Positions 17,273 to 31,053 of a DNA stretch of 34,906 bases are shown here, in pieces. A program made the position numbers and the translations under genes. Each line of letters opens with the position of its first letter. Position 1 is the stretch's first letter. The stretch lies in contig JADFNK010000022.1 in assembly GCA_022563405.1 (NCBI GenBank), positions 1-34,906 of the forward strand, written 5' to 3'. The notes under the pieces were generated by a model. That model did no database searches and was not told where the DNA came from. It saw nothing but the letters and a program-made list of their open reading frames with translations. The DNA comes from Gemmatimonadota bacterium (lineage in GTDB: Bacteria; Gemmatimonadota; Gemmatimonadetes; Longimicrobiales; Gaopeijiaceae).

Positions 17273-17413
17273 CCTTCCCCTCCTTGATTGCTGCAATCCG
17301 ATTCCTGCAATCCGCGGGTACTTTGTGTTGCCGACACACACATCTCGGGACGAAACACAGCAAGCTGAATCTAAACGGGCTCCCGGCTAGGGGGTAGACT
17401 GGTCTGAGGGCTC

Positions 17414-17433
17414 GCCTGAGATCCGGATCAGGC
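17414..17433. terminator. Stem-loop at the end of the SorC-like regulator gene
   Basis: GCCTGA at 17414-17419 pairs with TCAGGC at 17428-17433 around an 8-nt loop (GATCCGGA), touching the regulator stop codon. There is no T-tract in either direction. It may mark the left border of the tagging cassette transcriptionally; the terminator role is tentative. Confidence 0.35.
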
Positions 17434-18707
17434 TAACGCCCCACCGTCTTGAGCACCGCCCGCGCCGTCCGGTGGTCGCACACCAGATGCGTGAACAAGG
17501 GTCGGGCGAAGCGACCCCCGTCCACCGACGCCTCGGCCCCGAGCGCCGCGAGCAGCACGTCGCCTTTGTGAAAGCCAGCTTCGTAGGGACCGAGCACGAA
17601 CAGCACCTTCTTCCCATCATCGATGAAGTCGGGGATGCCCTCGAGCGGGGCGAGCGTCATCGCCTGCACCTCGGTCTCGACCTGGGGTGGTCCGTTGAAG
17701 GTGAGCGGCTGCCACAGCATGTCCGCGACGGTCCCTGCTTTGATCAGCTTGTTGTAGCCCCTCTTGTCGCGCTTACGCATGAGCGCCCTGAGCTGGGAAT
17801 AGATGGTGTTCAGGGGATTCGGGTCGTTCGGGTCCCAGACGGGGTCGGGGCCGGTGTCGGGGGCCGGCCGGATCTCACCCGAACTGGAGATTTCCATCAT
17901 CCGCCAGCTAGATCCCGCCGTGACGAGGATGTCGACCTCTCTGAACAGCTTGGCCGCCCTACGCATTTCAGGCTCCTCTTCGAGCAACGCTCGGACCTCG
18001 CGGCTCATGATCGGGGGAGCCTGGTAGGGCACGGCGGTCGTCCTGGTGTCGAGGCCGGGGATACGGAGCAAGTGCGTCATGAACGCGTTCGGGTCGGTCG
18101 ACGGGTCATGGTAGTCGATTCCCGTACACGCCGTGTGGAATCCGAGCGCCGGCGGCACGTCCTCCGGGTCCTCTCGCTTGAGAAGCTCGACCAGCGCTCG
18201 GACGATTCTCAAGACGGTCCGCCCACCTGCAAGCCCGATTCGGATGGTACCGCCCTCATCATCGGCATCGGCCTCCACCCGTCCACGGCGGGGCCGGACC
18301 CTGCTCCGCTTGACCTCCCACTCCTGCTGGATGAGGTCGAGTAAGACCTCTGCCGCTCGTGAGGCGACGTCGTCCAGGACCCCGGTCTGGACGACATGCA
18401 CACCGCTGAGCTTCCATTTCGCAGAGAGGTCCTCTCCGAGCTGCTCTTCCAAGGGAGGGCGGTACGTGAAGTACCCGAGCGCGGCCGCCAGTTGCAGAAG
18501 GCGGTACGGCTCCTCTCGACGGATGGTCTCGTCCTCGAAGCGCTCGCTCAGGTGCTTCTGGATCTGAGAGGGCGACTTCCCTTGGCAGAAAAGCCTGGCC
18601 GTGAGAGAGAGGCGCTCCTCGTGGTCTAGCTCACTGTAGGCTCGACGGAGCTCGGGGACCTTTACCACTCGGCGGCCGCGCTTGGACTCCTTCTCTAGCA
18701 TTCGCAC
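17433..18707 (-). CDS. SorC/DeoR-like transcriptional regulator of the tagging cassette
   Basis: 424 residues from GTG 18707 (AAAGG 4 nt upstream); ATG 18701 is an alternative. An N-terminal helix-turn-helix lies around 27-60 ('LTARLFCQGKSPSQIQKHL', then 'TIRREEPYRLLQLAAALGYF'), followed by a SorC-type ligand-binding domain from about 100: 'VASRAAEVLLDLI', the glycine-rich 'IRIGLAGGRTVLRIV', 'FMTHLLRIPG', and 'GTVADMLWQPL'. SorC proteins sense phosphorylated sugars and repress or activate adjacent operons. It is divergent from the RING/E1/E2 operon and is the obvious candidate for its control. The ligand is unknown. Confidence 0.75.
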   Translation of the reverse strand: MRMLEKESKRGRRVVKVPELRRAYSELDHEERLSLTARLFCQGKSPSQIQKHLSERFEDETIRREEPYRLLQLAAALGYFTYRPPLEEQLGEDLSAKWKLSGVHVVQTGVLDDVASRAAEVLLDLIQQEWEVKRSRVRPRRGRVEADADDEGGTIRIGLAGGRTVLRIVRALVELLKREDPEDVPPALGFHTACTGIDYHDPSTDPNAFMTHLLRIPGLDTRTTAVPYQAPPIMSREVRALLEEEPEMRRAAKLFREVDILVTAGSSWRMMEISSSGEIRPAPDTGPDPVWDPNDPNPLNTIYSQLRALMRKRDKRGYNKLIKAGTVADMLWQPLTFNGPPQVETEVQAMTLAPLEGIPDFIDDGKKVLFVLGPYEAGFHKGDVLLAALGAEASVDGGRFARPLFTHLVCDHRTARAVLKTVGR

Positions 18708-18837
18708 TCTACCTTTGAAACAGATATTGCATTACTGTCCGCATAGTAGTAGTCTTGTGTTCCACAGAAATCTGATATGTCCGATCAAGAGAACTGGGCA
18801 AGCTGAAATCGGCAACCCCCTGCTCTTGTTTTTCGGA
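18708..18837. promoter_or_regulatory. Divergent promoter/operator region between regulator and tagging operon
   Basis: This AT-richer stretch stands out from its GC-rich surroundings. It contains two imperfect dyads: TGTG-TTC-CACA at 18756-18766, and TCTGAT (18771-18776) facing ATCAAGA (18784-18790) with one bulged base. TTGAAA at 18715-18720 and TTGCAT at 18727-18732 could be plus-strand -35 elements, but no strong -10 follows. On the minus strand, TACTAT (18738-18743 region) could be a -10 for the regulator. All assignments are tentative. Confidence 0.4.
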
Positions 18838-19437
18838 GTGAGGCACCAGGATTTGAGAACCACGGAAATCTGGACGTCGGGACCCGACGATACCCCTTCG
18901 CCGACCCGAACGCGAACCGCTGTGTGGCTTCGGCGGGCAGGCCTCAAGTCTTCCGCGGATCTTTCGCCGCGCTCCGAGCCCGACTTCGTCATGCTCCTAC
19001 CGACGAAACCCAGGGGGCGCACCTGCGGAGTGGCTCTGGTGCCCGACGCCTGCACAGGCCACGTGCTTCTCAATGGGGTTCGCCTCAGACCGGGCATGCA
19101 CGTCCTCCGACACGCCGACCGCGTCGCCCTGGACGGTCGAGCCGTGTGGTTCGCGATCTCGGCGGCACCGGACGAGGTCCCATACGACCCGGATGTTCAC
19201 GGTGACCCCGTGTACTGCCATCGCACCAAAGCGCGGCTGAAGGAGGGCGATCCGATGGTGATCTGCCGGGGAACGCCCGAGGCCGACTGCGGCATGATGT
19301 TCACGGCAGCCGCATGGGGGGCGGGGATCCCCTGCCACAGTTGCGGTGCCCAACCTGGGGACCCCGGATGGACGCCACCGCCATCCGAGCGAACCGGCTC
19401 GCTCGCCGAGTTGCTCGAACTCGTCGCGGAGGCCTGA
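18838..19437 (+). CDS. FHA-like and RING-like zinc-binding protein (candidate E3)
   Basis: About 199 residues from GTG 18838; TTG 18853 is an alternative start and an open frame extends to 18682, but that part overlaps the regulator start and looks non-coding. Residues about 75-105 ('GHVLLNGVRLRPG', 'HADRVALDG') resemble the C-terminal half of an FHA domain. Residues 123-170 carry zinc-ligand candidates Cys127, His128, Cys143, Cys151, Cys166 and Cys169, in the layout 'C-H...GDPMVIC...DCGMMFTAAAW...CHSC' typical of prokaryotic RING/treble-clef fingers. It lies 3 nt upstream of the E1 gene, supporting an E3-like or adaptor role in Ubl conjugation. One zinc site looks degenerate, so a single-zinc ribbon is possible. 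Confidence 0.6.
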   Translation: MRHQDLRTTEIWTSGPDDTPSPTRTRTAVWLRRAGLKSSADLSPRSEPDFVMLLPTKPRGRTCGVALVPDACTGHVLLNGVRLRPGMHVLRHADRVALDGRAVWFAISAAPDEVPYDPDVHGDPVYCHRTKARLKEGDPMVICRGTPEADCGMMFTAAAWGAGIPCHSCGAQPGDPGWTPPPSERTGSLAELLELVAEA

Positions 19438-19440
19438 CAG

Positions 19441-20646
19441 ATGTCGGATCCCGGTCTCATGTCGGACGACGTGGTGGACGACGTGGTGGACGACGGTCGC
19501 TTCGATCGCCTCCGTGCGACCGCGACCTTCGCGGACGCGGCACACGAACACTGGATGCAGGCGACGCTCGCCGTTGTCGGTGTGGGCGTTCTGGGGAGTC
19601 TGTTCGCCCGCGAGGCATCACGTTCGGGCACCCACATCGATCTGTACGATTTCGACATCGGTGAGGCCCATAACAAGGGAAATCAGCCCGTGGAAGTCGG
19701 CGAGCCGAAGGCCGAGGCCATCGCTCGCCTCTGCAACTCGATCGCTCCTGGGTCCGCACGGGCCCACGTCGAGGACATCCGGCATGTAGGTGCAGGCTCG
19801 TTCGAGCATATCGCGCTGATCGTCGACTGCACGGACGATGCAGCCCTCGCGCTGCCGCTCACCGAGCTGTCGAACGGCTGGGGGATTCCGCTCCTGAGGC
19901 TGGCAGTCGACGGGAGCGGCCGCCTCGAGCTCGGTCGTGTGCTGGTTTCGCACGGTGGACAGGGTCACGCCTGCCAGCTCTGTGCGTCGAGCTGGAAGGA
20001 CGTATTCGATCCGGGCGCGCGCACTCCCTGCCTAGGTGACGAGAAGCAACAGGCCCCCACCAACGCGGGGTCGGCGCTGGCCATGTCGGTGGCCGGGCTC
20101 GGGCTGCTCTACGCCCAGCGCCTCGTAGGCGGAAACGGATCGGATCGGATCCTCGACGAGGAGGTGATAGTGGATCTCGACACTCCCGGGATCCTGCCCA
20201 TGAAGCTCCGCAGGAACGAAGAATGCCTCAGTGGGCACACGCGGTTCGATCCGACCCACCTGGACCGCAGCGCCGCCAACACGACCGTAAAGGAGTTGTT
20301 CTGGCTCGCGCGCATCGCCCTCGAGGATTCCCGGAACCCCGGCCCACTCCAGGAGATCAGCCTGGCGTTCCGAGGGCACCCAATCCTGCTCGGCGTCGCC
20401 TGCCCGGGTTGCGGCTTGGAGCTGGTTCGCCCCGGCACCTTCTGGCGACCGGCTCCCGAATGCCCCCGGTGTGGTGTGGTCATGGAACGCCGTAGAGACG
20501 CGGCCCTCGATCACATGAACCAGGCCCAAGCTCGTGCCCTCGGGTTGGCCGACACGAGCTGCGAAGCTCTGGGGCTACCCACCAAGGGGGCTCTGGTGAT
20601 CGCCCGTGCTCCAGGTTACTCGCCCGTCCAACTCCTGTTTGCCTGA
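19441..20646 (+). CDS. ThiF/MoeB/E1-like Ubl-activating enzyme
   Basis: The 401-residue protein has a Rossmann adenylation domain: GVGVLG at 47-52, ribose-contacting acidic 'YDFD' at 69-72, 'HNKGNQPVEVGEPKAEA' at 78-93 (the N-L-N-R-Q...VGKPKA region, with the Arg replaced), and 'VDCTDD' at 128-133. Zinc ligands match MoeB/UBA5 order: Cys178 and Cys181, then Cys262 with His266 replacing the last Cys. Cys197 sits where MoeB/MOCS3 enzymes have a conserved cysteine and is the candidate thioester or persulfide residue. A C-terminal domain has an extra zinc ribbon (Cys321/324, Cys341/344). A 12-bp tandem repeat encodes VVDDVVDD at the N-terminus. Neighbouring E2, Ubl and JAB genes argue for Ubl activation rather than thiamine or Moco synthesis. 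Confidence 0.87.
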   Translation: MSDPGLMSDDVVDDVVDDGRFDRLRATATFADAAHEHWMQATLAVVGVGVLGSLFAREASRSGTHIDLYDFDIGEAHNKGNQPVEVGEPKAEAIARLCNSIAPGSARAHVEDIRHVGAGSFEHIALIVDCTDDAALALPLTELSNGWGIPLLRLAVDGSGRLELGRVLVSHGGQGHACQLCASSWKDVFDPGARTPCLGDEKQQAPTNAGSALAMSVAGLGLLYAQRLVGGNGSDRILDEEVIVDLDTPGILPMKLRRNEECLSGHTRFDPTHLDRSAANTTVKELFWLARIALEDSRNPGPLQEISLAFRGHPILLGVACPGCGLELVRPGTFWRPAPECPRCGVVMERRRDAALDHMNQAQARALGLADTSCEALGLPTKGALVIARAPGYSPVQLLFA

Positions 20647-20655
20647 GAGGAAAAC

Positions 20656-21252
20656 ATGACCCACACACCCGACATCCAGTTCTCCCTCAGCGACCTCCTC
20701 GAACAGTTGCACGATCTCTCCGGGCTCGATGAAGGCCTTCCCGACCCCTCGACCGGCGAGGGTCAGGCCACACGCGACTTCTTCGCAAACAACTGGGAGG
20801 AAGCCCGCACGGGGCTGCTCTCCCGCACGCAACGGGTTCAGGTGCGGCCCTTACCCGGGACTGGGCCACGGTCGTTCGCGTTCGAGTTCGATCGCCCTTA
20901 CAAGTGCAAGCGCCCCGATGGAATGGTGGAGCTGGCTCCCGGCCCGGTGACCGGCACCATCCGGTACCGGCCCAACGTCCTCACGCCCGACCCCAGATCC
21001 CGCTCAGTCATAGTCTTCGTCGACTCCGAAGGATTCTATCACACGAACTACAGCCGAGTAGCCAAGGTCTTGTGCCTCGGGGACTTTCCCCCCGGACCGT
21101 TCCCGTTGGAAGCACTGGTCGAGCATCTCTATTCCGTCATCTCGTACCAGAACATGGACTCCACCAACCCCGCGGACAAAGAGGCCCTCCGCTACTTCGG
21201 GACCGACCCCGACGCTCTCGAGGGACTCACCGAAGTACAGCCCCTCTACTGA
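20656..21252 (+). CDS. E2-fold ubiquitin-conjugating-enzyme-like protein
   Basis: 198 residues. The second half follows the UBC pattern: 'SVIVFVDSEGFYHTNY' gives an HTN in place of the eukaryotic HPN motif (His129, Thr130, Asn131), 'VLCLGDFPPGPFPLEALVEHL' places Cys140 at the catalytic cysteine, and 'SYQNMDSTNPADKEALRYF' matches the 'PN-DP-N-EA---F' helix region. The N-terminal 60 residues are a separate helical extension. It would accept activated Ubl from the E1 nine nt upstream. SD AGAGG precedes ATG 20656. Divergent from well-known E2s, but the linked residues make the call good. Confidence 0.78.
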   Translation: MTHTPDIQFSLSDLLEQLHDLSGLDEGLPDPSTGEGQATRDFFANNWEEARTGLLSRTQRVQVRPLPGTGPRSFAFEFDRPYKCKRPDGMVELAPGPVTGTIRYRPNVLTPDPRSRSVIVFVDSEGFYHTNYSRVAKVLCLGDFPPGPFPLEALVEHLYSVISYQNMDSTNPADKEALRYFGTDPDALEGLTEVQPLY

Positions 21253-22190
21253 TGGGAACCACGCTTACCCAGGTGGAGACGCCGCCTACACGGACGCCGT
21301 CCACGCGGAGGGCGACGCCGCTCACGCTAGAGACGGCGCCCGCGCAGGTGGTGACGCCTCTGGTTTCCGGGTCGCTGCCCACTGCCCGGGGGCTCCACTG
21401 GAAGGACGGCTTTCGGGGTCACATGAATACGGGAGAGGGCGTGGCGCAGGTCCGGCTCGACGCGACGGACGGAGTACGCGTTCGCATGAAGCTGAATCGG
21501 CGTCCCGCTCCTGCGGAGGCGTTGGTGCTGAACGCTACGCTGCCGGCCAACCTGCGCGTCGCCGGACCCGCCCACCGGTGCCATCTCCTGGCGGACATAT
21601 CGTCCGTCCAGGCCGGATTCTCGCAGAGCCTCAGCGAGATTCGACAGGGGATCCGGCGCAACCCCAACGCCACTGGAAAGGGCAGGCGGCCTGCAGTTGG
21701 TGACCGGGGGCCGTACGAGCACGTCTTCGAGCAGCTATGCGAGGGAAGCGGTTCCCTGGACGTGGTCGATCGCGAGCCCGACTGGGAGATCGGCATCCGG
21801 ATTCAGGGCGGGCGAGTGGCCGTACGCGTATCCCCGGAACGAAGCGGGCTGCGACTGTACCGGATCGTGCTCAAGCAGGCTGAGTTGAGTGGGGTCGAGG
21901 CGGGCTCTGAAGGCCCGTCGGTGGAAGGCCTGTCCGTGAATGACCTGGCCCTGCGCTTGAACGAGGACATGCGATTCGTGCGCCTGTCCCGGATCGATGC
22001 CGGCGTGGCAGTCGAGGCCCGTCTCAGTCGGGCGCTCGTGGACGTCGAGCGAGTAGTCGACACGGCCAGCGCGATCGCCGTCGTCAGCGCGGAGGTGGGC
22101 ATTCCGCTGCGGACCCTTTTGAAGACAGAGGGCGTGGCTCGTTGCTACGCCGACACATTCGACCTCCCCAATGGAGAAACCAAACGATGA
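21252..22190 (+). CDS. Unrecognised 312-residue protein between E2 and Ubl genes
   Basis: Starts at ATG 21252, overlapping the E2 stop by one base, and ends with an ATGA overlap with the Ubl gene, so it is clearly part of the operon. The N-terminal 40 residues are Thr/Pro-rich and low in complexity. The rest looks like two alpha/beta modules: one with 'GEGVAQVRLDATDGVRVRMKL' at about 60-80 and one with 'DWEIGIRIQGGRVAVRVSPE' at about 180-200, followed by helices ('SVNDLALRLNEDMRFVRLSRI'). The repeated sheet-helix pattern is reminiscent of YbjN or secretion-chaperone-like folds but I cannot assign it. Cysteines are few and show no zinc motif. It could be a substrate adaptor or E2/Ubl scaffold. 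Confidence 0.7.
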   Translation: MGTTLTQVETPPTRTPSTRRATPLTLETAPAQVVTPLVSGSLPTARGLHWKDGFRGHMNTGEGVAQVRLDATDGVRVRMKLNRRPAPAEALVLNATLPANLRVAGPAHRCHLLADISSVQAGFSQSLSEIRQGIRRNPNATGKGRRPAVGDRGPYEHVFEQLCEGSGSLDVVDREPDWEIGIRIQGGRVAVRVSPERSGLRLYRIVLKQAELSGVEAGSEGPSVEGLSVNDLALRLNEDMRFVRLSRIDAGVAVEARLSRALVDVERVVDTASAIAVVSAEVGIPLRTLLKTEGVARCYADTFDLPNGETKR

Positions 22191-22492
22191 TCACCACCTC
22201 GAGAATCCGATTTTCCGACCTGAGCCAGCAGAAGCGGTTCAGCACTGATCTGACGGACGAACTCACGGTCGACCACAACGTAGACCAGGCCATCGAGCAC
22301 TTCCTCGAGCAGATCGGCGTTCCAGAAAACGATCTGCCCTGGTCGGCATACAGTCGTGGAGTCCGGCTGGACAAACGAACCCGCCTCGGCGATCTGCCGG
22401 AGCAGGATGCCGACTGGACGGTGCTCCCGACCGTCACAGCCGGAGGCGCCGGGGCGTCGACAGGCCCGTCGACAGGCCCGTCGACAGGCTGA
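22187..22492 (+). CDS. Ubiquitin-like protein precursor with internal Gly-Gly
   Basis: 101 residues. The pattern suits a beta-grasp fold: strand 'SRIRFSD', strand 'ELTVDHNV' leading into helix 'DQAIEHFLEQIGV', then 'WSAYSRGVRLDKRTRLGDL' and final strand 'DWTVLPTV'. Gly86-Gly87 follows the last strand exactly as in Ubls, but a 14-residue tail (AGA then STGP-type repeats) follows, so maturation by the neighbouring JAB protease is predicted. The tail is coded by a 12-bp tandem repeat. Two lysines are present (Lys16, Lys63). ATG 22187 overlaps the upstream stop as ATGA. Confidence 0.75.
   Translation: MITTSRIRFSDLSQQKRFSTDLTDELTVDHNVDQAIEHFLEQIGVPENDLPWSAYSRGVRLDKRTRLGDLPEQDADWTVLPTVTAGGAGASTGPSTGPSTG
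22456..22491 (+). repeat. 12-bp tandem repeat coding the Ubl C-terminal tail
   Basis: Three head-to-tail copies of GTCGACAGGCCC (the last ends CTG and runs into the stop) encode TGPS-type repeats after the Gly-Gly. Copy number change would lengthen or shorten the tail in steps of four residues without touching the Ubl core. Confidence 0.85.
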
Positions 22493-22503
22493 GGACCTCC
22501 GCA

Positions 22504-23535
22504 ATGCACGTGACCACGGACTTCCCGTTCGAGCTCTTCACCGAGTTGAGCGTCGATCCGGAGTTGGGGGCTGAGGCGATCCATCGTGAGAGTGTCCAGT
22601 CCGACTTGGGCGAGCTCGTTGAGGAGACCTTCGTCGGGGGTGTTCTCGCTGACGCTTTCCCTACCCACCCCGGTGGGGTCCGCGTCGACATCACCCCGGT
22701 GTGGGACCAAGAACCCCGCGCACGGGCGCTCGAGGTCCGGATTACCGAGCAGGATGGTGAGGGGCGCTCGTTCACCCGGCGCTTCGAGACGGGCCGTTGG
22801 ATGAGGCGGGCCCAGCGGAAGACAGAGCAACTCGTCGATGAGGGCACGCTGGAGGAAGGAGTCCGGACGTACGTTCATCTCCTCGCCGAAGGCAAGGACA
22901 ACCCGCCCGAGCTCAGCCTCCCAGCGCTACAGGCTCCAACGATTACGGAGCAGTCACTGGACGAGTTCGGCGTGCGCGAGCTGGGTGACGGTGAGTTCTG
23001 TCCCGATCGTCCCGTTCTGGTCAACGAGCGAATGCTCGAGGAGATCCTGAGTCATACGGAGGAGGCCGGAGCCGAAGAGACGGGTGGCAGCACGCTGGGC
23101 AAGATGATCAAGCTCGACCAGCCGTTGCCGGGGACGAGCACGCGGATCGTCACGGTGCTCAGCGCGAGCTTGATGGACGCCCGCCACAACGGGACCGTTG
23201 CCCGCATCACCTTCGATCCGGCGGCTCTTCAGGAGGCCGCCCAGGTCGCCCAGCTCCGTGCTAAGGGCGAAACCGTGCTGACGGCCTTCCACACGCACGG
23301 CTGGGGCACCGAGTGCGGGCAATGCAACCAAAACACAGGGTGCACCCTCCCGTCGGCCACCCTCGTGTCTCTGGACGACTACCAGGTGTTGGAGTGCCTT
23401 TTCCCGAGTAAGGCGACCCTCATGCCCATCGCCGGGCGCAAGCTCGGTGCTCCGGGCACCCGACCCGTGCTCGAGATCCACGCGTGGCGGGGTGGTCGAA
23501 TGGTCTCGATTCCTTGGCGGACCTACGGCGACTGA
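22504..23535 (+). CDS. JAB/JAMM-type metalloprotease (Ubl peptidase)
   Basis: 343 residues. The JAMM zinc site is complete: Glu192 in 'EETGGSTLG', His263 and His265 in 'FHTHG', Ser289 and Asp292 in 'SLDD'. The gap between the second His and the Ser is 23 residues rather than the usual 7 and carries three cysteines (Cys271, Cys274, Cys280), suggesting an inserted loop, perhaps with its own metal. The first 165 residues are an extra domain I do not recognise. Likely jobs are trimming the Ubl precursor after Gly87 and removing Ubl from targets. It lies 11 nt after the Ubl stop. Confidence 0.87.
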   Translation: MHVTTDFPFELFTELSVDPELGAEAIHRESVQSDLGELVEETFVGGVLADAFPTHPGGVRVDITPVWDQEPRARALEVRITEQDGEGRSFTRRFETGRWMRRAQRKTEQLVDEGTLEEGVRTYVHLLAEGKDNPPELSLPALQAPTITEQSLDEFGVRELGDGEFCPDRPVLVNERMLEEILSHTEEAGAEETGGSTLGKMIKLDQPLPGTSTRIVTVLSASLMDARHNGTVARITFDPAALQEAAQVAQLRAKGETVLTAFHTHGWGTECGQCNQNTGCTLPSATLVSLDDYQVLECLFPSKATLMPIAGRKLGAPGTRPVLEIHAWRGGRMVSIPWRTYGD

Positions 23536-25409
23536 TGGAAGCACCCGATGCGAAGGAACCGAATGCGGGGGACCCGAATGTGGAGGCACCGAATGTGGAG
23601 GCACCGAATGCGGAGGCAAACAATGCGCCTGTTGGAGGCATCATGAACCGACTTGCCGCTCTCACTCAGATCCTGAAGGACGCGGGTCATACGCCCGACG
23701 AATCTGGCGGCGGTGACGTTCCCCTCGTGGAAGTGGACCGGTTGCTGACCCAGGCCGAGATGGACCCCAAACAGGCGGTCGCTCAAGTCCTCGTTGCGCG
23801 TCTTGCGGGCGACAAGGCCAAGAGATCTGCGGCCGAGGTCATGAAATCGGTGGAAGGCTTGCAGGGCATCCTCGAGAAGTTGCTCGAGGGCAGGCCTTTC
23901 CTGTGCCGCCTCGAGAGCGTGACCGGTAGCCACGAGACCGAAGCCCGGGCTACGGTCACGCTCGGCGGCCAGCTGCGTGAGCTGGCCGTCCATCCCGACG
24001 TCGATCTGGAGGCGCTCGGCGCCTTGATGCCCTGGCACTTCGTGTGTGTCCACCCCCAGGAGATGGTCGTCACCGGGTACCGCAACGACCCCGCACTCTT
24101 CGCGCGCGCCCAAGGCGAGCTGGTCGAGTTCTTGGGTTGGGCGGACGAATCGAGGTACCTGGCAAGGGTTTCGTACTTGGGAAACGAGGAGCGAATCGTG
24201 GCGCTGGCGCCGACGCTCCACGGCGTCGAGCTCCAGGCACCGGCCCGCCTCGTGCTCCAGCGCGACGACGACAGGTGGGCCATCGAAGTTCTGCCGCAGG
24301 ACCGTCGGGAGAGCCGATTCGAGATCCAGCTCGATACCATCACGACACGTCTCGAGGACCTGGCCGGCCTCGACTCGGTGAAGGAGCGCTTGATCGAGGA
24401 TCTGGTCCTCCGGGTCCTCCATCCGGACGTACCCGAGCGGTTCGGTGTGAAGCCCATGCGGGGCCTCATACTCGAGTCGCACAAACCCGGCCAGGGGAAG
24501 ACCGCACTCATAAGGGCGTTCGCGGCGTACGCACGGGACCTCGGCAAGGAGCACGATTTTGATGTCTGCCTCTATTTCGTGCCCCCGGGGGCCCTGAAGA
24601 CGGTCTGGCACGGCGGGGACGCCAAGCTGGTTCGGGAGGACCTGTGCGGGGCGATCCGAGCCCGTCAGATGCGTCCCCGCACGCGGCCGCTCTTTCAGTT
24701 GATCGTGCTGGACGAGATCGACTCCCTCGGCAAACGTGGCGGGGAGATGATGTCCTCGGCCCAGAACGACGCGCTGACCGCGCTGTTGTCCGAGATGGAC
24801 GGCCTGGTCCAGTGGGAGAACGCCCCGGGGCAGCCGAGCGCCGAGATGCTCTGGGTGGGCATGACCAATCGCATCGACCTGGTGGACGTCGCGATCAGTC
24901 GTCCCGGTCGCTTCGATTTGGTCCTGCCGATGCCGGAGCCGACGTTGGAGTCGGCCGAGGCGGTCATGGCGATCTACGCCACCTGCGGGGCGTGGTACCT
25001 GGACGAAACGGTCCACACCTCCCTGGAGGAGGAGATCATCCGGTCCGCGTTCCTTCGGCCAGCCCTGGGTCACGTCTTCGAAGCACAGGTTCTCCGGTAC
25101 TCGACCGAGAGTCAGAGCGGCGTCAGCGTGACGGCGGGACGGCTCATGTCGAGCGCCCACTACGAAGCGGCCATGAACACCGCCAAGAGGTGCGCAGCGA
25201 TGCGGGACTATCGAGGGGTGGGAATTCCCGCGGTGGCGGTGGAGGACGTCATCGAAGCCTTGTTGGAGGAGGCTCACTCGGCGGCCCGTCGCATGAGCGC
25301 AGATCACGGCACCCTGGCTCGGGAGCTCGAAGTGCCCGGGCACATCACACGGGTGGAGATGGTGGCTACCGACGAGCCTCGACCCCACCGCTACCTCCGA
25401 GCCTCCTAA
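23535..25409 (+). CDS. Proteasomal-ATPase (ARC/Mpa)-like AAA unfoldase
   Basis: 624 residues, close to the about 600 of Mpa/ARC. Order: repeat-rich N-terminus (2-31), a helical probably coiled-coil region (36-118), two OB-like domains (about 121-180 and 200-255), and one AAA module (about 270-580). Walker A is HKPGQGKT (316-323, first Gly replaced by His), Walker B is VLDEID (391-396), sensor-1 Asn445, Arg fingers in 'SRPGRFD' (Arg456, Arg459). The pore loop reads 'TVWHGG' with Trp358 as the aromatic. The C-terminus is 'HRYLRAS', not the exposed Gln-Tyr-Leu that docks Mpa on the 20S core. It overlaps JAB and the Dop-like gene by one base each. ATG 23643 is an alternative start without the repeats. 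Confidence 0.85.
   Translation: MEAPDAKEPNAGDPNVEAPNVEAPNAEANNAPVGGIMNRLAALTQILKDAGHTPDESGGGDVPLVEVDRLLTQAEMDPKQAVAQVLVARLAGDKAKRSAAEVMKSVEGLQGILEKLLEGRPFLCRLESVTGSHETEARATVTLGGQLRELAVHPDVDLEALGALMPWHFVCVHPQEMVVTGYRNDPALFARAQGELVEFLGWADESRYLARVSYLGNEERIVALAPTLHGVELQAPARLVLQRDDDRWAIEVLPQDRRESRFEIQLDTITTRLEDLAGLDSVKERLIEDLVLRVLHPDVPERFGVKPMRGLILESHKPGQGKTALIRAFAAYARDLGKEHDFDVCLYFVPPGALKTVWHGGDAKLVREDLCGAIRARQMRPRTRPLFQLIVLDEIDSLGKRGGEMMSSAQNDALTALLSEMDGLVQWENAPGQPSAEMLWVGMTNRIDLVDVAISRPGRFDLVLPMPEPTLESAEAVMAIYATCGAWYLDETVHTSLEEEIIRSAFLRPALGHVFEAQVLRYSTESQSGVSVTAGRLMSSAHYEAAMNTAKRCAAMRDYRGVGIPAVAVEDVIEALLEEAHSAARRMSADHGTLARELEVPGHITRVEMVATDEPRPHRYLRAS
23538..23627 (+). repeat. 15-bp tandem repeat in the 5' end of the AAA gene
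   Basis: Six in-frame 15-bp units with consensus GAGGCACCGAATGYG encode a five-residue repeat of the type Glu-Ala-Pro-Asn-Ala/Val. The middle units are nearly identical, indicating recent expansion. It forms a flexible acidic N-terminal tail before the coiled-coil region. Confidence 0.85.
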
Positions 25410-27103
25410 TGCCGATTCCCAAGCTCATGGGCCGCGACTGCGAGCTCTCCACGACGGGACTGACCCCCGAGGGTCGGACCCTACACTCATGGCGTGTGAC
25501 ACGACACGTGCTCGCGAACATCGACGCCGCGTTCGAGCCCGTCGGTGGAAGGGTCTGGACTCGCCGCTCATGGTGGCAGGAATCCGGACCGACGGGATCC
25601 AGATACAGCTCCAGTTACACGTCCGACGCGGGAGCTCTCTCGGGCTCGTGGCAGGGGTCCGATGGGACCAGCTCGTCCACATGGCAGGGGTCTCAGTCCA
25701 TCGACGCTCTCCGTCACTGGGCCTCGTCGGGACAGTGTTACTACTCCGACATGAGCCACCTGGAAGTTTGCACTGCGGAGACCTTGGACCCGCGTAAGCT
25801 CGCGGCCCAGTGCTTGAGCAACCTTCAAGTGTGCGAGGTGGCCCGCAAGCGGGCGGAGGCAGAGGCCGAGCCGGGCACCACGTACGCCCTCACCACGGCC
25901 AACGTGGACATCGTGGATCCCGGAGTCTCGTGGGGCACACACTTCAACGTCGCGGTGGAGCCCGATCTCTGGGAGGACCTGTTCGACGACATCAGGCGCC
26001 CGGCACGGTTGGGCTTCGTGTCCAGCGCCCTGGCCGCTCTGATTCCGTTCTTCGGTGCCGGCTACGTTCTCCCACTGCGCTCCGGGCCGCGTCTCAGCCT
26101 CAGTGCTCGAGCCCACCACCTGACCCGCTTGAGCACTCTTCCCACCACCGAGACCTACGCCCGAGGGCTTCTCAACGCCCGCCGGGAACCCCACGCTCAG
26201 GGAGAGGATCGGCTGCACCTCATCGGCTTCGATCTCGCGCTTGCCAGCGGGGCGCTTCTGGCTTCCACACTCCAGTGCTGCCTCGCCGCCGCCGAGCTTG
26301 GGTTTGCAGGGCTGGGACTGTACGAGCCCGTCCGAGCCTTGGGCGCATGGAGCCTCGGACTCGACGCCACGACGGGCCGGCTGACCGGTGTGGCCAGGTT
26401 GGCCGATGGTGAGCGGATCACCCTTCCCCTCTACATGCGAAGGTTGGTCTCCCTCCTCATCGGTCTGGTCGACGACGGATCCATCCCCGAAGAGGTCGCT
26501 CCAGGTGCGTCCGAGCTTCTCCCGAAGGTCCTGGATCTGACCCACTTCCTGGAAGAAGGCTCGCTGGATCGGTACGCACCCCACCTGGATTGGGCCGCTA
26601 AGCTGCTGGTTCTCGTCGACCTGTGCCGACGGGACGGCATGAAGCTGGACGACATGCCGATCCGGGTCGCTGATCACGACTACGCCTCCAGCGACCCGAG
26701 TCGGGGTCACTTCTGGAAGCTCTGGGAGCAGGGTCGCGTGGACCCGCTCGTGAGCCACGAAGACGTCGAGGCCTGCCTCCTGGACGGTCCCGAAGATGGC
26801 CGTGGTTGGGCCCGGGGACGGCTGATTCGGGACTACGGAGATCGAATCACCGACGTGAATTGGAGCCACGTGGAGCTCAGAGGGGAGGGGTCGTTCTGGG
26901 GATCCCGGGTCCGCGTCGAGATGCCCCGGCCGAGCAGTCTATCCCGCGACGTTTTTGAGCCGGTACTGGCCGCGGCTCGCGACGTCGAGGAGATCGGGCG
27001 GTTACTCCCGACCGATCCCGTGGAATCCCCGGAGGTGGAGGCGGAGGGTGATCTGCGGGCCGAAATCGTAGCTCCCGCAGGCGGGGTTCTCCGGCTGACC
27101 TGA
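25409..27103 (+). CDS. Divergent Dop/PafA-family protein (candidate Pup deamidase/depupylase)
   Basis: 564 residues with carboxylate-amine ligase-like landmarks of the Pup ligase family: 'MGRDCEL' (7-13) for the family's GIETE (Asp10, Glu12), 'YYSDMSHLEVCTAET' (111-125) with Asp114 at the catalytic Asp and Glu119, Glu124 for ATP/metal, 'VSWGTHFN' (173-180) for 'YGCHEN', and 'NARREPHA...RLHLIGFD' (256-275) for the 'RDEPHA...RLHVIVGD' region. A Ser/Gly/Trp-rich insertion at about 54-98 sits between the first two motifs, where Dop carries its loop, favouring Dop over PafA. It is longer than either (about 480-500). It overlaps the AAA gene by one base. The family call is firm; the deamidase assignment is inference. 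Confidence 0.75.
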   Translation: MPIPKLMGRDCELSTTGLTPEGRTLHSWRVTRHVLANIDAAFEPVGGRVWTRRSWWQESGPTGSRYSSSYTSDAGALSGSWQGSDGTSSSTWQGSQSIDALRHWASSGQCYYSDMSHLEVCTAETLDPRKLAAQCLSNLQVCEVARKRAEAEAEPGTTYALTTANVDIVDPGVSWGTHFNVAVEPDLWEDLFDDIRRPARLGFVSSALAALIPFFGAGYVLPLRSGPRLSLSARAHHLTRLSTLPTTETYARGLLNARREPHAQGEDRLHLIGFDLALASGALLASTLQCCLAAAELGFAGLGLYEPVRALGAWSLGLDATTGRLTGVARLADGERITLPLYMRRLVSLLIGLVDDGSIPEEVAPGASELLPKVLDLTHFLEEGSLDRYAPHLDWAAKLLVLVDLCRRDGMKLDDMPIRVADHDYASSDPSRGHFWKLWEQGRVDPLVSHEDVEACLLDGPEDGRGWARGRLIRDYGDRITDVNWSHVELRGEGSFWGSRVRVEMPRPSSLSRDVFEPVLAAARDVEEIGRLLPTDPVESPEVEAEGDLRAEIVAPAGGVLRLT

Positions 27104-27195
27104 CCCACGAACCGAGAATTCTGGAGAGGCCGAGCATCTCTCCGGCATGGCCTTTCGACACACATCGTTCGGCACACATTAAGGAGGACATCAGA
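27104..27195 (+). promoter_or_regulatory. Leader of the Pup-like gene: stem-loop, direct repeat and strong SD
   Basis: In an operon of overlapping genes this 92-nt gap stands out. GGAGAG (27123-27128) pairs with CTCTCC (27138-27143) over a 9-nt loop. Two 12-bp copies of TTCGRCACACAT follow at 27154-27165 and 27168-27179 (14-bp period, one mismatch). A perfect AAGGAGG (27181-27187) lies 8 nt before the ATG. This suggests separate, higher expression of the Pup-like protein, by internal promoter, mRNA processing or simply strong translation. Confidence 0.5.
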
Positions 27196-27399
27196 ATGGA
27201 TCAGCAACGGAATCTTCAGCCGCCGACCCGTCGCACCGACGCGGTGGGCCCAAGCTCCGTCGAGCCCGAGCCCGAGAGCTCGCTTCTCCAGGAAGCACTG
27301 GGTTGGGCCGGGAGCGCTCGGGAAGCCCACGCGAGGATCGAAAACGAGCAGGCCGCAGACCTTCTGGCCACTCGGCGGCGCAACGGCCCCGGCCAATGA
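27196..27399 (+). CDS. Pup/UBact-like small protein modifier ending in Gln
   Basis: 67 residues, the size of Pup (about 64). The N-terminal third is polar and Pro-rich, apparently disordered; residues about 29-60 ('SLLQEALGWAGSAREAHARI' onward) are predicted helical, as in the Mpa-binding part of Pup; the C-terminus is RRRNGPGQ. Terminal Gln implies activation by deamidation before ligation, and the two Dop/PafA-family genes lie on either side. The usual Gly-Gly-Gln is Gly-Pro-Gly-Gln here. There is no lysine or cysteine at all, so chains on itself cannot form. It has the best SD in the operon and its stop overlaps the next gene's start (ATGA at 27396). Confidence 0.72.
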   Translation: MDQQRNLQPPTRRTDAVGPSSVEPEPESSLLQEALGWAGSAREAHARIENEQAADLLATRRRNGPGQ

Positions 27400-28796
27400 C
27401 CTCGTCGCGCTGCTTGTTTTCCCTCGAGCAGGAGTGCCAGACCACGGTCGAGGCGACCGACGGGGAAGCTCAGATCTCCGAAACACTCAGGCGCTTTCTG
27501 AAGATCTTCGGCGATCTGGCCCCTTCCCTCCCTGGCGAGGGGGGCCTGTTCAACGCGTACGGGCGAGTGTACGTCGACATCAACCATCACCTGGAGTTCT
27601 CGGCCCTCGAGTGCGATTCGCCCTATGTGCTCGCGCAGATGGTCGACACGCAGTACGGGCTGGCTACGAAAGCGACGGCAGAGCTCGGGCGGCGCGGCGG
27701 TCGGAGTGCTAAGGGCGGCGGCGTGAAGCTGTTGCTCGTCAACAACAACCACAACGGACTCCTACGCCCGGAGACCGCGTTCTGGGGGACCCACGAGAAC
27801 TACCTCATCGACGGTCCGGCTCAGGACCTCGCGGACCTCACGCTCCCGTTTCTGGTCACGCGTCTGTACGGTGGCGCCGGTGGTGTGCTCTTTCCCACCG
27901 CCGAGTTTCTGGCGGGTACGCGGCCCTTGGCCATGGAGCTCGCGACCGGAGGACACACGACGGGGAATCGAGCCATCTACTCGACCTGCCGCGAGGAGCA
28001 CCACATGGGACCCCGTCCCAAGGGTCGCCGGCTCCACCTGATCCTCGGCGATGGTCACCGCAGCCAATTCAACCTTGCCCTTCAGTTCGGAGCCACTGCG
28101 CTGGCCCTGAAGGCGATCCAGTCGGACCGGGAGCTGGGGGCTCAGTTGGGAAAGGTGACGCTGCGGCGGCGGGGCGAGGGTTGGGTGGGCACACTCCAGC
28201 GTCTGAACAAGTTGGCCAACCCAGGGGAGCCTCCGCGGGTGGATCCATCCGTGATCGAGGTGCAGCGTATCTACCTCGACGCCGCGGGCCGGTGGGTGGC
28301 GTCCATGTCGGATCCGCAGGAATGGATGGCGCAAATTCTCGAGGATTGGGAACTGACCCTGGATGCATACGAGCGGGCCGATCGCTCCTGGCTCGCGCCC
28401 CGGTTGGATGCGTTCACCAAGTACGAGCTCTACAGCGCCTACTTGGAGGACCGCGGATCATCGTGGGCCGAGCTCGTCGACGACATCGAGGCCCTGAGCA
28501 CGTTGGGGCTTCTGGATCACGACTACCACTCCATCTCCGAGCCCGTGTCGGCCTTCTCGGACCTGGAGCAGCGCGGTCTGCTCAGCCAGCGTGTGGGAGA
28601 CCGGATCGAGCCCGGGAGTGAAGAAGAGCCTTACGTACCCGCCGTGGGTACCCGGGCGCGGGCGCGGGCGAGATTCATCAAGGAGCATTCGGGTCGAACC
28701 GATCTGATCATGAGTTGGGACCGCGTGTTCGAGCTGCCACCCAATGAGCGGGTGAGGACGCTGTTCGATCCGTTTGCGGAAGCGTATGCGGGGTAA
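27396..28796 (+). CDS. PafA/Dop-family Pup ligase-like protein
   Basis: 466 residues, close to PafA (about 480). Motifs align well: 'FSLEQE' (8-13; Glu11, Glu13), 'RVYVDINHHLEFSALECD' (57-74; catalytic Asp61, Glu67, Glu72), 'AFWGTHENYLI' for 'SYGCHENYLI', 'LPFLVTRLYGGAG' for 'LPFLVTR...GAG', 'CREEHH...RLHLILGD' for 'RDEPHA...RLHVIVGD', and the C-terminal 'DRVFELPPNERVRTLFDPF'. No Dop-type loop lies before the Asp, so I favour ligase (PafA) activity: ATP-dependent isopeptide bond between the modifier's C-terminal Glu side chain and a target lysine. ATG 27396 gives a 4-nt overlap with the Pup-like stop. Ligase versus deamidase is not certain. Confidence 0.85.
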   Translation: MTSSRCLFSLEQECQTTVEATDGEAQISETLRRFLKIFGDLAPSLPGEGGLFNAYGRVYVDINHHLEFSALECDSPYVLAQMVDTQYGLATKATAELGRRGGRSAKGGGVKLLLVNNNHNGLLRPETAFWGTHENYLIDGPAQDLADLTLPFLVTRLYGGAGGVLFPTAEFLAGTRPLAMELATGGHTTGNRAIYSTCREEHHMGPRPKGRRLHLILGDGHRSQFNLALQFGATALALKAIQSDRELGAQLGKVTLRRRGEGWVGTLQRLNKLANPGEPPRVDPSVIEVQRIYLDAAGRWVASMSDPQEWMAQILEDWELTLDAYERADRSWLAPRLDAFTKYELYSAYLEDRGSSWAELVDDIEALSTLGLLDHDYHSISEPVSAFSDLEQRGLLSQRVGDRIEPGSEEEPYVPAVGTRARARARFIKEHSGRTDLIMSWDRVFELPPNERVRTLFDPFAEAYAG

Positions 28797-28821
28797 GGGG
28801 GTGGGATCTCGGCGCCTGGAC

Positions 28822-28869
28822 AACTGAAGGCATGGGAACTTGAAGGCCTAGGAACCTGAAGGCATGGGA
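28822..28869 (+). repeat. Three 16-bp tandem repeats spanning the FtsZ-like start codon
   Basis: Copies at 28822-28837, 28838-28853 and 28854-28869 share the consensus ACYTGAAGGCATGGGA. Each carries GAAGG, and copies one and three an ATG; the third supplies the real start at 28864. The first ATG is closed after three codons by TGA. The array duplicates the ribosome-binding/start element, so copy number could tune translation. Confidence 0.8.
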
Positions 28870-29958
28870 ATCACGAGACGGGAATTCGTAGCGCAGATGG
28901 GGGCCGGCGCTGCGATTATTGTGGGCGTGCCCACCCTGCCCACACTTCCCACCCCGCCCACCGACCGCTCCCAAAAATGGTTGATCCTGCCCTCGCAACC
29001 TTGCATCAGGGTTATCGGCGTGGGTGGAGCCGGAACGCTCGTGCTGGACCGGATGGCCGGGATCGGTCACGCGGGGATCGACCTGATAACCGTCGATACC
29101 GACGCGCAGAACCTGCGGTTCAGACGGGCCGCGGTGAAGCTGCACATTGGAGAGGCCGTCCCCCGTGGTCTGTGCGGGGGCGGAGGACGGGTCGAGTACG
29201 GAAGAGGCGCAGCCGAGGAGAGCAGGGAGCGCGTACACGCCGTCCTCGAGGGGGCTGATGTCGTCGTCGTGGTCGCGGGACTGGGGGGTGGCACAGGAAC
29301 CGGGGCCGCCCCCGTGGTTGCAGAGGTGGCGCGGAGACTGGGGGCGTTGACCCTGGGAGTCGTCTCACTCCCCTTCGAGTTCGAGGGGCAGCGACGCAGA
29401 CGCCAGGCCGCCAACGGAGTCAGGGAGCTGGCCGACCGGCTGGACACCACCGTCGTCGTCCCCAGTCGCGCTCTGGTGCCACCAGCCGATTCCAACATCC
29501 TGTTGAGCCATGCGCTAGAGCGCGTCGACGAGCTCATGTTGCAAGCCACCCAAAGCCTCACCGTTCCGCTCGTTCAGCCAGGCCTGATCAACATCGGCTT
29601 CAGCGATTACCGGGAACTCTTCAACCAGAGCGGACCCGCGCTCGTGGCGGCCGCTGTGAGCGATGGCGAACATCGGGCGAGAGGCGCGGCGCAGGCGTTG
29701 CTCGAACACCCGGTCCTCGATGGTGTCGATCTGCGGTGTGCTTCCGCGGCGTTGGTGACGATCGCCACCGGCATGGGCGATGACGACCTGACGATTGGTG
29801 AGATCGACGAGATCTCCACCGTGTTGTACGACAGGTTGAGGGAAGCGATGGTCGTGTTGACCAATGTCCAGGATCCGACGCTCGGCAGGGGGTGCCGTGT
29901 TACGCTCACTGCGCTGGGCCTCGACAAGGTCCTGGGACCGGATCCCGCGCTTTGTTGA
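28864..29958 (+). CDS. FtsZ-like tubulin-superfamily GTPase with a Tat-like N-terminus
   Basis: 364 residues. The GTPase domain closely follows FtsZ: 'RVIGVGGAG' (49-57), 'GIDLITVDTDAQNL' (71-84), tubulin signature GGGTGTG (141-147), 'GALTLGVVSLPFEFEGQRRRRQA' region, and 'GLINIGFSDYR' (240-250). In this catalytic T7 loop the first FtsZ Asp is Gly245 while the second is kept (Asp248), so GTP hydrolysis may be weakened. The N-terminus reads TRREF (4-8) then a short hydrophobic run 'GAGAAIIVGV' and Pro-rich linker, a Tat-signal-like segment never expected on FtsZ. The C-terminal FtsA/ZipA-binding peptide is absent. This is a dedicated paralogue, not the cell-division gene. 67 nt after the PafA-like gene. 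Confidence 0.82.
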   Translation: MGITRREFVAQMGAGAAIIVGVPTLPTLPTPPTDRSQKWLILPSQPCIRVIGVGGAGTLVLDRMAGIGHAGIDLITVDTDAQNLRFRRAAVKLHIGEAVPRGLCGGGGRVEYGRGAAEESRERVHAVLEGADVVVVVAGLGGGTGTGAAPVVAEVARRLGALTLGVVSLPFEFEGQRRRRQAANGVRELADRLDTTVVVPSRALVPPADSNILLSHALERVDELMLQATQSLTVPLVQPGLINIGFSDYRELFNQSGPALVAAAVSDGEHRARGAAQALLEHPVLDGVDLRCASAALVTIATGMGDDDLTIGEIDEISTVLYDRLREAMVVLTNVQDPTLGRGCRVTLTALGLDKVLGPDPALC

Positions 29959-29994
29959 GGCGGTGCATGGCCTCTGCGGCTTCGGGAGGTACAT

Positions 29995-30210
29995 ATGGGC
30001 GATCAAGATCACACGCGCGCCAACGACCGTACGATCCGCGTGTTCATCTCGTCGACGTTCCGTGACATGATCGAGGAGTGCGATGAGTTGATGACGCACA
30101 CGTGGCCGGAGCTGCGCCGGCTATGCCAGGAACGCCAGGTCGAATTGGTGGAGGTGGACCTGCGGTGGGGCATCGCATCGCGCTCGGCGCCGAGCGAAAC
30201 TCGGTGCTAG
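29995..30210 (+). pseudogene. Truncated DUF4062-domain gene
   Basis: The 71 codons begin with a good SD (GGGAGG 29984-29989 region) and encode 'TIRVFISSTFRDMIEECDEL' and 'VELVEVDLRWGIA', the start of DUF4062, a domain found at the N-terminus of large NACHT/WD40/TPR conflict proteins. The family normally continues to 'C--EI--C--FIGLLG-RYG' and then several hundred residues; here the frame stops just after WGI. It is a remnant cut off by a rearrangement at about 30200-30240, or much less likely a small stand-alone protein. Confidence 0.72.
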
Positions 30211-30240
30211 GTATGGTGCTCGTCCAAGGCGGGAGGCTAG

Positions 30241-30447
30241 TTTTTGTTCGGATCCGCGATTGGACTCGGGATCGGATTCCTGCTGAGCCGGCTCACCGCG
30301 AGCCTGGTCGTCGGGGTCGGACCGAACGACCCGGTCACCTTCATCGGCGTCCCGCTGGTACTGCTCGCGACCGCCCTGGTGGCCAACCTCATCCCGGCGC
30401 TCAGGGCAACCCGCATCGATCCCATATCTTTAGTCTTTGGAGGTTGA
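30241..30447 (+). pseudogene. 3' remnant of an FtsX/MacB-like (ADOP) permease gene
   Basis: About 68 codons ending 'ALVANLIPALRATRIDPISLVFGG' preceded by 'SRLTASLVVGVGPNDPVTFIG', the last transmembrane segment and terminal 'P-RRA-R-DP---L' motif of FtsX-type permeases. An in-frame TAG at 30238 closes the frame upstream; the family is normally 400-800 residues. GGGAGG at 30231-30236 before a TTG could allow translation of the stub but it cannot be a working transporter. The junction with the DUF4062 fragment marks a deletion or insertion edge. Confidence 0.75.
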
Positions 30448-30479
30448 GAAGTGAGCCCATGTGAAAAAGGTGGAAGCAG

Positions 30480-31013: not shown

Positions 31014-31053
31014 GCTCGCCGTGCGCCAGGCAGTCCAAGGAGGACGCCTCTAA

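What the first reader, a model, noticed from the sequence alone, without database searches (positions are those of the whole stretch)
18838..29958. One operon joining a ubiquitin-type conjugation set to a pupylation-type set and an FtsZ-like filament protein
The sequence shows, in one tightly coupled plus-strand operon, RING-like protein, E1, E2, an unknown, Ubl, JAB, ARC/Mpa-like ATPase, Dop-like, Pup-like, PafA-like and FtsZ-like genes. Ubl/E1/E2/JAB sets are known from bacterial antiphage Bil and CBASS-linked systems; Pup, PafA, Dop and ARC are known from actinobacteria and as UBact in some Gram-negatives. I do not know of a characterised system that couples both. The one-base and four-base overlaps argue that they work together, e.g. 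two tags marking one target, or Ubl marking and Pup-driven unfolding. A defence or conflict role is inferred from the family types and the adjacent DUF4062 remnant.
Basis: partly seen in the sequence, partly recalled or inferred. Interest (0 to 1): 0.95.

Follow-up and report, generated by a model that had tools for sequence, protein, structure and literature searches.

The report
Operon pairing ubiquitin-type and Pup-type tagging
A bacterial gene cluster encodes both a ubiquitin-like tagging set and a Pup tagging set with one unfolding motor; the same ten genes in the same order occur in seven Planctomycetota draft genomes, so the two tags likely act together, and because no 20S proteasome was found in the eight draft genomes searched, tagged proteins would be unfolded rather than digested by one.

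Summary
Ten genes (RING-like, E1, E2, a chaperone-fold protein, Ubl, JAB, ARC-like ATPase, Dop, Pup, PafA) form one plus-strand operon with 1- and 4-base overlaps. The same ten, in the same order, occur in all 7 related genomes found (Planctomycetota drafts; 5 on one contig, 2 split at contig ends inside the operon). Trees of the two halves agree except for one weakly placed genome (Mantel r 0.92). Motifs kept in 8 of 8: E1 Cys, E2 H(P/T)N/CLG, JAMM, Ubl V[ST]AG, Pup G[QE]. The Ubl model matches ubiquitin/SUMO folds. PF00227 hits in 5 of 8 genomes are all HslV, and the ATPase shows no proteasome-docking tail. The FtsZ-like gene is adjacent but not in the conserved set; nothing here shows a defence role. 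A same-genus genome lacks ~14.3 kb holding the operon. Coupling of Ubl and Pup conjugation was noted in one sentence in print (Kaur 2020), so the kind is not new; my searches found no characterisation. Most likely mechanism (inferred): Ubl selects the target, Pup supplies the disordered handle, JAB strips Ubl, the ATPase unfolds.

The parts
18838..19437 (+). RING-like candidate E3: N-terminal region resembling an FHA end (by eye, not tested) plus a cysteine-rich C-terminus; start GTG 18838 or TTG 18853
   Evidence: Ortholog at the head of the operon in 8 of 8 genomes; five invariant Cys in 7 rows; no firm family match
19441..20646 (+). E1-like adenylating enzyme, single ThiF domain; C197 candidate catalytic Cys; C178/C181/C321/C324/C341/C344 candidate zinc site
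   Evidence: PF00899 5.6e-13; profile best matches Cap2; these residues invariant in 8 of 8
20656..21252 (+). E2-like conjugating enzyme, H(P/T)N...CLG active site, Cys140
   Evidence: Profile vs PDB: Ubc1 1fxt E 0.0014 aligned over HPN...C; motif in 8 of 8, HPN in 7 and HTN in the window; no Pfam match in 7 members
21252..22190 (+). Unknown gene; C-terminal domain with class I type III-secretion-chaperone/YbjN-like fold
22187..22492 (+). Ubl, one beta-grasp domain ending V-T-A-G86 followed by a 15-residue extension
22504..23535 (+). JAB/JAMM metalloprotease with ~170-residue N-terminal region; candidate JAMM residues E192, H263, H265, S289, D292
   Evidence: PF14464 4.8e-5; invariant residues in 7 rows; HxHG...SxxD in 8 of 8 with a CxxC..C insert
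23535..25409 (+). ARC/Mpa-like AAA+ unfoldase; Walker A/B and aromatic pore loop present; no HbYX/GQYL tail
   Evidence: TIGR03689 8.7e-26, below cut-off; motifs in 8 of 8, C-termini listed; start ATG 23535
25409..27103 (+). Dop-like Pup deamidase/depupylase, with GRDCE in place of GhExE
   Evidence: PF03136 9.5e-39, TIGR03688 1.5e-35; PDB Dop 9cku 2.2e-18; GRDCE in 8 of 8
27196..27399 (+). Pup-like modifier, 67 aa, no lysine, C-terminus RRRNGPGQ
   Evidence: G[QE] terminus in 8 of 8 genomes; two tandem copies in L008
27396..28796 (+). PafA-like Pup ligase (LEQEC, YVD and WGTHEN motifs)
   Evidence: PF03136 1.3e-44, TIGR03686 2.2e-35; solved Dop/PafA 1.8e-19 to 6e-18; 47-50% identity to relatives
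28864..29958 (+). FtsZ-like protein, adjacent but not part of the conserved set
   Evidence: PF00091 3.7e-33; second FtsZ in the genome at 43% identity; no match in 13 related loci; TIGR00065 253 bits vs cut-off 295
17393..31643 (.). ~14.3-kb segment holding the operon, missing from a genome of the same genus (G002); exact left edge uncertain (17299-17393)
   Evidence: Flanks lie 12 bp apart in L068 if a weak 50-bp match (E 0.006) is counted, 87 bp apart by the strong matches alone

Best explanation
The operon encodes an E1-E2-Ubl-JAB set and a Pup-PafA-Dop-ARC set that have been inherited together, and most likely they work as one two-tag unfolding machine. Inferred steps: JAB trims the Ubl precursor after Ala-Gly86; E1 adenylates the Ubl and passes it from Cys197 to Cys140 of the E2, which conjugates it to a target, perhaps chosen by the RING-like protein. 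Dop deamidates the Gly-Gln end of Pup to Gly-Glu, and PafA ligates it to a lysine of the same target. The disordered Pup is then the handle threaded by the ARC-like ATPase, the folded Ubl is the selection mark, and JAB removes it as the ATPase pulls, as Rpn11 does in the eukaryotic proteasome (established knowledge, used as analogy). No 20S protease or docking tail was found, so the predicted output is unfolding or disassembly; a role other than proteasomal targeting has been argued for the ATPase of proteasome-less pupylation loci. The chaperone-fold protein probably holds an extended segment (Pup, the Ubl tail or the target).
For: Ten-gene order in 8 of 8 genomes including the window; trees of the Ubl half and Pup half share all three pairs with 93-100 support, Mantel r 0.92, 2 of 10,080 sampled permutations as high; all 8 genomes with this E1 hold the Dop/PafA pair; overlapping genes, with the JAB/ATPase overlap joining the halves; motifs intact; Ubl fold, E2; an extension after V[ST]AG in 4 of 8 Ubls implies maturation; aromatic pore loop in 8 of 8; no 20S found: PF00227 hits in 5 of 8 genomes, all five HslV; the control genome Corynebacterium glutamicum likewise rings for Pup_ligase and not for PF00227; passages of Barandun 2012: ATPases of proteasome-less pupylation loci lack the docking motif and pup directly precedes pafA, both as here.
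Against: Nothing shows that both tags land on one target; one shared ATPase for two separate pathways fits the genomics as well. Seven of the eight genomes are Planctomycetota drafts and the window's is a 157-contig draft, so missing 20S genes are weak evidence. The E3 is not firmly identified and the E2 fold rests on a profile match and motif, not a model. Congruent trees could reflect common vertical descent, and the place of one genome (G415) differs between the halves with weak support (69 against 41). The ATPase, Dop and PafA fall below NCBIfam equivalog cut-offs, and Dop has Asp for the first Glu of GhExE.
Confidence: 0.48

Rival explanations
1. Two parallel tags: Ubl and Pup mark different targets and share the operon because both feed, or are recycled around, the same ATPase.
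For: Each half has its own writer and eraser; single ATPase gene in the operon; 2 of 8 genomes carry a further Pup_ligase gene elsewhere, so Pup ligases also exist apart from this operon.
Against: The halves were not found apart among the 8 genomes with this E1, and the genes overlap across the joint.
Confidence: 0.25
2. Antiphage or conflict system: the operon is a Bil-like defence in which phage proteins are tagged and then unfolded.
For: Family types; weak matches of the E1 to defence E1 models (PADLOC E1-E2 6.1e-8; NCBIfam 6A-MBL cap2_3 5.3e-8 but 32 bits against a cut-off of 320); the segment is missing from a same-genus genome; patchy: among 98 relatives, 154 genomes of the order and 395 of the phylum only the window's own genome has it; DUF4062 remnant downstream; Kaur 2020 places the related Ubl systems among conflict systems.
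Against: No specific PADLOC system; flanks differ between loci and Pfam on ten flanking genes shows no defence family; no relative of the E1 in the plasmid, phage and viral collections; no toxic effector seen in the conserved set.
Confidence: 0.15
3. Pup is ligated to the Ubl itself, making a composite tag (Ubl core plus disordered tail) that the E1-E2 cascade then places on targets.
For: The window Ubl has only two lysines, K16 and K63; K16 is matched in 7 of 8 orthologs and a lysine lies at or next to the LD-x-K position in 8 of 8; the window Pup has none.
Against: No direct evidence; the lysines may serve chain formation or solubility.
Confidence: 0.1
4. Chance adjacency or assembly chimera.
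For: The window genome is a 157-contig draft.
Against: Same ten-gene order in 7 other genomes; left flank syntenic with a same-genus genome at 82-84% DNA identity; the window PafA cluster has 18 member sequences on 6 contigs.
Confidence: 0.02

Closest known systems
[quoted passage not shown] 2020 (PMC7159879)
   Same: Coupling of the two conjugation systems, also in Planctomycete lineages; suggested link to target degradation
   Different: No gene list, order, motifs or experiment in the passages I saw (supplements not available); the window genome probably lies outside Planctomycetota (inferred), its phylum is not known, and here no 20S proteasome was found
Pupylation locus ARC-Dop-Pup-PafA without proteasome genes (corynebacteria)
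   Same: Gene set, pup directly before pafA, no docking tail, G[QE] terminus (signature)
   Different: Joined to a Ubl conjugation set; enzymes far below equivalog cut-offs
BilABCD and other bacterial Ubl operons (types 6a-6e of Iyer 2006)
   Same: E1, E2, Ubl and JAB genes or domains in one operon
   Different: BilA has two Ubl domains and BilB a CEHH motif (passages); here a single Ubl domain and H(P/T)N...CLG; the Iyer 2006 classes in the passages list no Pup genes
Five-gene ubiquitin cluster of Caldiarchaeum subterraneum
   Same: Ubiquitin, E1, E2, RING and Rpn11-like genes side by side (passages); its ubiquitin is a close fold match
   Different: No Pup, Dop, PafA or ARC in the cluster as described
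Rhodopirellula/Plesiocystis Pup ligases
   Same: Pup ligase outside actinobacteria without linked proteasome genes
   Different: Those have an insertion of four membrane segments and link to a membrane-protein gene; no such insertion is evident in the window's ligases, which align through with solved Dop and PafA

Membership tests
Pupylation system | Pup ending in G[EQ] | tested here: met
   8 of 8 genomes
Pupylation system | PafA and Dop paralogs of the Pup_ligase family | tested here: met
   PF03136 9.5e-39 and 1.3e-44; at least two copies in 8 of 8 genomes
Pupylation system | Gene order arc-dop-pup-pafA | tested here: met
   pup before pafA in proteasome-less loci; the full order is recalled
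Pupylation system | Pup ligation activity | not testable with these tools
   Sequence only; Dop has GRDCE instead of GhExE
Pup-proteasome system (with 20S) | 20S core subunits in the genome | tested here: not met
   PF00227 hits in 5 of 8 genomes, all HslV; the genomes are drafts
Pup-proteasome system (with 20S) | C-terminal docking motif on the ATPase | tested here: not met
   C-termini such as HRYLRAS, FHYMHIQTT and RFVRAESA end in no shared HbYX or GQYL (motifs recalled; the L005 protein is cut by the contig end)
Ubiquitin-type conjugation | E1 adenylation domain with catalytic Cys | tested here: met
   PF00899, Cap2 match, C197 invariant; the catalytic role of C197 is inferred
Ubiquitin-type conjugation | E2 fold with catalytic Cys | tested here: met
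   Profile hit Ubc1 E 0.0014 and motif in 8 of 8; no structure model was made and Pfam has no match
Ubiquitin-type conjugation | Beta-grasp modifier with C-terminal Gly | tested here: met
   processing needed in 4 of 8
Ubiquitin-type conjugation | JAMM protease | tested here: met
   HxHG...SxxD in 8 of 8
Ubiquitin-type conjugation | RING E3 | tested here: inconclusive
   Five invariant Cys; Prok-RING_1 in 1 of 7 at E 0.065
BilABCD | Two-domain ISG15-like Ubl | tested here: not met
   One domain, ~86 residues; definition
BilABCD | E2 with CEHH motif | tested here: not met
   H(P/T)N...CLG instead; definition
Antiphage defence system | Protection against phage | not testable with these tools
   Context gives no support
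Ubl-Pup coupled system of Kaur 2020 | Ubl- and Pup-conjugation genes coupled | tested here: met
Ubl-Pup coupled system of Kaur 2020 | Relation to the Ubl sets of FtsH-ternary systems | not tested
   No sequence of those sets was compared

The most novel reading that the evidence does not exclude
A bacterial machine writes two unrelated tags on one target: a folded ubiquitin-type tag for selection and a disordered Pup as the pulling handle, with a JAB protease clearing the first while one motor threads the second. It would be an independent assembly of the eukaryotic logic of affinity tag, unstructured initiation site and Rpn11, without a proteasome.
Probability: 0.35. Interest if true: 0.92.

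Novelty: new member of a known kind. Interest (0 to 1): 0.74.

Why it matters
Ubiquitin and Pup are textbook examples of convergent tagging systems, with different folds and chemistries. A conserved operon encoding both offers a compact system to test how tags, unfoldases and deubiquitinase-type proteases were combined, and whether prokaryotes split 'select' and 'unfold' between two tags. The kind was noted once in print; here the gene set, order, motif conservation, co-inheritance and lack of a detectable 20S partner are laid out for eight genomes, which makes the question directly testable.

Tried and rejected
FtsZ as part of the system: rejected, no match in 13 partly overlapping loci of 7 related genomes; sequence beyond PafA is available for 5 of the 7. 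Defence from context: not supported. RING and FHA identity: PDB profile search empty, Pfam weak. Unknown protein: the sequence profile gives only designed proteins; its fold points to T3SS chaperones/YbjN, but Foldseek had nothing at E <= 0.001, and residues 48-136 were hardly tested. A weak N-formylglutamate amidohydrolase hit (0.0087, under cut-off) was not pursued. PHROGs: one marginal E1 hit among 10 proteins. Promoters and terminators: at shuffle level. Conserved neighbours: 4 pairs among 316 flanking ORFs, none with the window. Empty-site search in other relatives: besides G002, eight further stretches (L063-L067, L069-L071) keep either the left two genes or the DUF420 gene, never both. 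Phylum of the window's genome not established; that it is not Planctomycetota is inferred from the handles listed not overlapping (only part of each list is shown). Burroughs 2011 could not be read.
Full report
WHAT IS THERE. The window is a whole contig (C141) of an unnamed 3.25-Mb draft genome, G000. Eleven plus-strand ORFs run from 18838 to 29958. Overlaps suggest translational coupling within and across both halves: 1-base overlaps (TGATG or TAATG) at E2->unknown, JAB->ATPase and ATPase->Dop, and 4-base overlaps (ATGA) at unknown->Ubl and Pup->PafA. Placing the ATPase start at ATG 23535 rather than GTG 23484 is my choice; it gives the same overlap pattern and joins the two halves.

PUP HALF. 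The order is arc-dop-pup-pafA, with pup directly before pafA, as in proteasome-less pupylation loci (passages of PMC3511204). Two Pup_ligase-family enzymes: by NCBIfam the first is nearer Dop, the second nearer PafA. The Dop has a longer stretch between its first motif and the Asp of YSD than the PafA has to YVD, and GRDCE where the family motif is GhExE (motif from PMC2588565, parts 1-2 of 3 read). Pup orthologs end G[QE] in 8 of 8 genomes; L008 has two Pup genes in tandem. The ATPase keeps Walker motifs and an aromatic pore loop in 8 of 8 but no docking tail.

CONSERVATION. One genome-contig scan with E1 profile A2 gave 6 loci, all Planctomycetota by title; a search of 392 genomes of that phylum gave 4 matches, three already known and one new, G683. 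So 7 relatives, all examined: RING-like, E1, E2, unknown, Ubl, JAB, ATPase, Dop, Pup and PafA in that order in all 7. In 5 of 7 they lie on one contig (in L007 the PafA frame runs off the contig end); in 2 (G414, G418) the pieces end at contig ends between ATPase and Dop, and in G414 the second piece starts with the ATPase C-terminus. Identity of the window to relatives is 38-40% over the Ubl half and 46-49% over the Pup half. The halves' trees agree in the pairs G414-G416, G417-G683 and G418-G419 (support 93-100) and disagree only on G415 (support 69 and 41); Mantel r 0.92, with 2 of 10,080 sampled permutations reaching it. In the protein database, of 18 E1 hits (out of 56) whose longest contig I tabulated, 5 share a contig length with one of 23 tabulated PafA hits (out of 120 listed); suggestive only. 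Not tested: how often this PafA type occurs without the E1. All 8 genomes have at least two Pup_ligase genes, and two (G418, G419) a third elsewhere.

RARITY AND MOBILITY. Only the window's own genome has a match among 98 relatives (Pup_ligase), among 154 genomes of the order (window PafA) and among 395 of the phylum (E1 profile; there, as, only four first-look candidates per genome were scored). In same-genus G002 the strong left anchor (to 17299) and the right anchor (from 31644) lie 87 bp apart; a weak 50-bp match (E 0.006) would carry the left edge to 17392 and leave 12 bp, so 14.25-14.35 kb is missing. The right anchor is only 136 bp (76% identity) near a contig start, and the first 197 residues of the right-hand gene are missing too, so loss in G002 is as possible as gain here. 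The left flank shows that the contig belongs to the genus (82-84% DNA identity). The composition of the segment does not stand out.

NO PROTEASOME FOUND. PF00227 gave one hit in each of 5 of 8 genomes (G000, G415, G417, G419, G683) and none in 3; all five are HslV above its cut-off. The controls show that this family also rings in E. coli, and that Corynebacterium glutamicum rings for Pup_ligase but not for PF00227. Draft completeness limits this.

FTSZ AND DEFENCE. The FtsZ-like protein is a second FtsZ (43% to the other copy) with GGGTGTG but NIGFSD instead of NVDFAD in the T7 loop (loop names recalled). It is found beside the operon only here. Flanks of relatives share nothing with the window. 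Pfam on ten flanking genes gave a DUF4143/AAA_14 ATPase, a kinase, a beta-helix protein and an FAD oxidoreductase, nothing for six, and no defence family.

LITERATURE. Nine searches ran over an open-licence library; most subscription text is not held. One sentence in Kaur et al. [quoted passage not shown] The passages I saw of Iyer 2006, PMC7947786, PMC11354881, PMC4197634 and PMC8195603 do not mention it; PMC7203096 was searched only in its held first part, with no hit. PMC7947786 notes a single-copy Dop/PafA relative in some Planctomycetes. Burroughs 2011 (PMC5938088) is not held, so I cannot say what it contains. I therefore file this as a new member of a kind noted once and, as far as these searches reach, uncharacterised.

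HOW IT LIKELY WORKS. Shown: gene content, order, co-inheritance, intact motifs, Ubl fold, no detectable 20S. Inferred: conjugation by both halves, both tags on one target, JAB acting like Rpn11, unfolding as the output, and the role of the chaperone-fold protein. The main rival, two parallel tags around one ATPase, fits the genomics equally; the preference rests on the tight coupling of the halves and on the complementarity of a folded selection tag and a disordered handle.

Noticed in passing
window 17436-18707 (-): Divergently placed 424-aa ORF upstream of the operon, inside the segment missing from G002; no Pfam, NCBIfam or PHROGs match; by eye a possible regulator.
   Followed up: partly
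window 23536-23631: Five copies of a 15-nt tandem repeat encode a PNxEA-like repeat at the ATPase N-terminus; the Ubl tail has a TGPS repeat and 28814-28870 holds three copies at 16-nt spacing before FtsZ.
   Followed up: partly
window 28864-28960: The FtsZ-like ORF begins with a twin-arginine-like leader (ITRREFVAQMGAG), odd for a cytosolic filament protein; may be a fusion or a misplaced start.
   Followed up: no
window 29995-30210: Short DUF4062-like start (E 0.0016, under cut-off), followed by a short ORF at 30244-30447 that by eye looks like a permease end; probable remnants inside the segment.
   Followed up: no
L008:14731-15373: Two tandem Pup genes with different N-termini, both ending in PGQ.
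   Followed up: partly
L010:18013-20331, L036:2289-4616, L035, L007: In four relatives the PafA frame carries a ~300-aa C-terminal extension (cut by the contig end in L007), TPR-like in L036 (TPR_12 3e-4, under cut-off); a possible target-selecting arm.
   Followed up: partly
L016 and L017 (G418, G419): A third, higher-scoring Pup_ligase gene lies away from the operon in two genomes.
   Followed up: no
L035 (reverse strand) 7321-8160: A second E1-like ORF (2e-6 to the window E1) a few kb downstream of the operon in G414.
   Followed up: no
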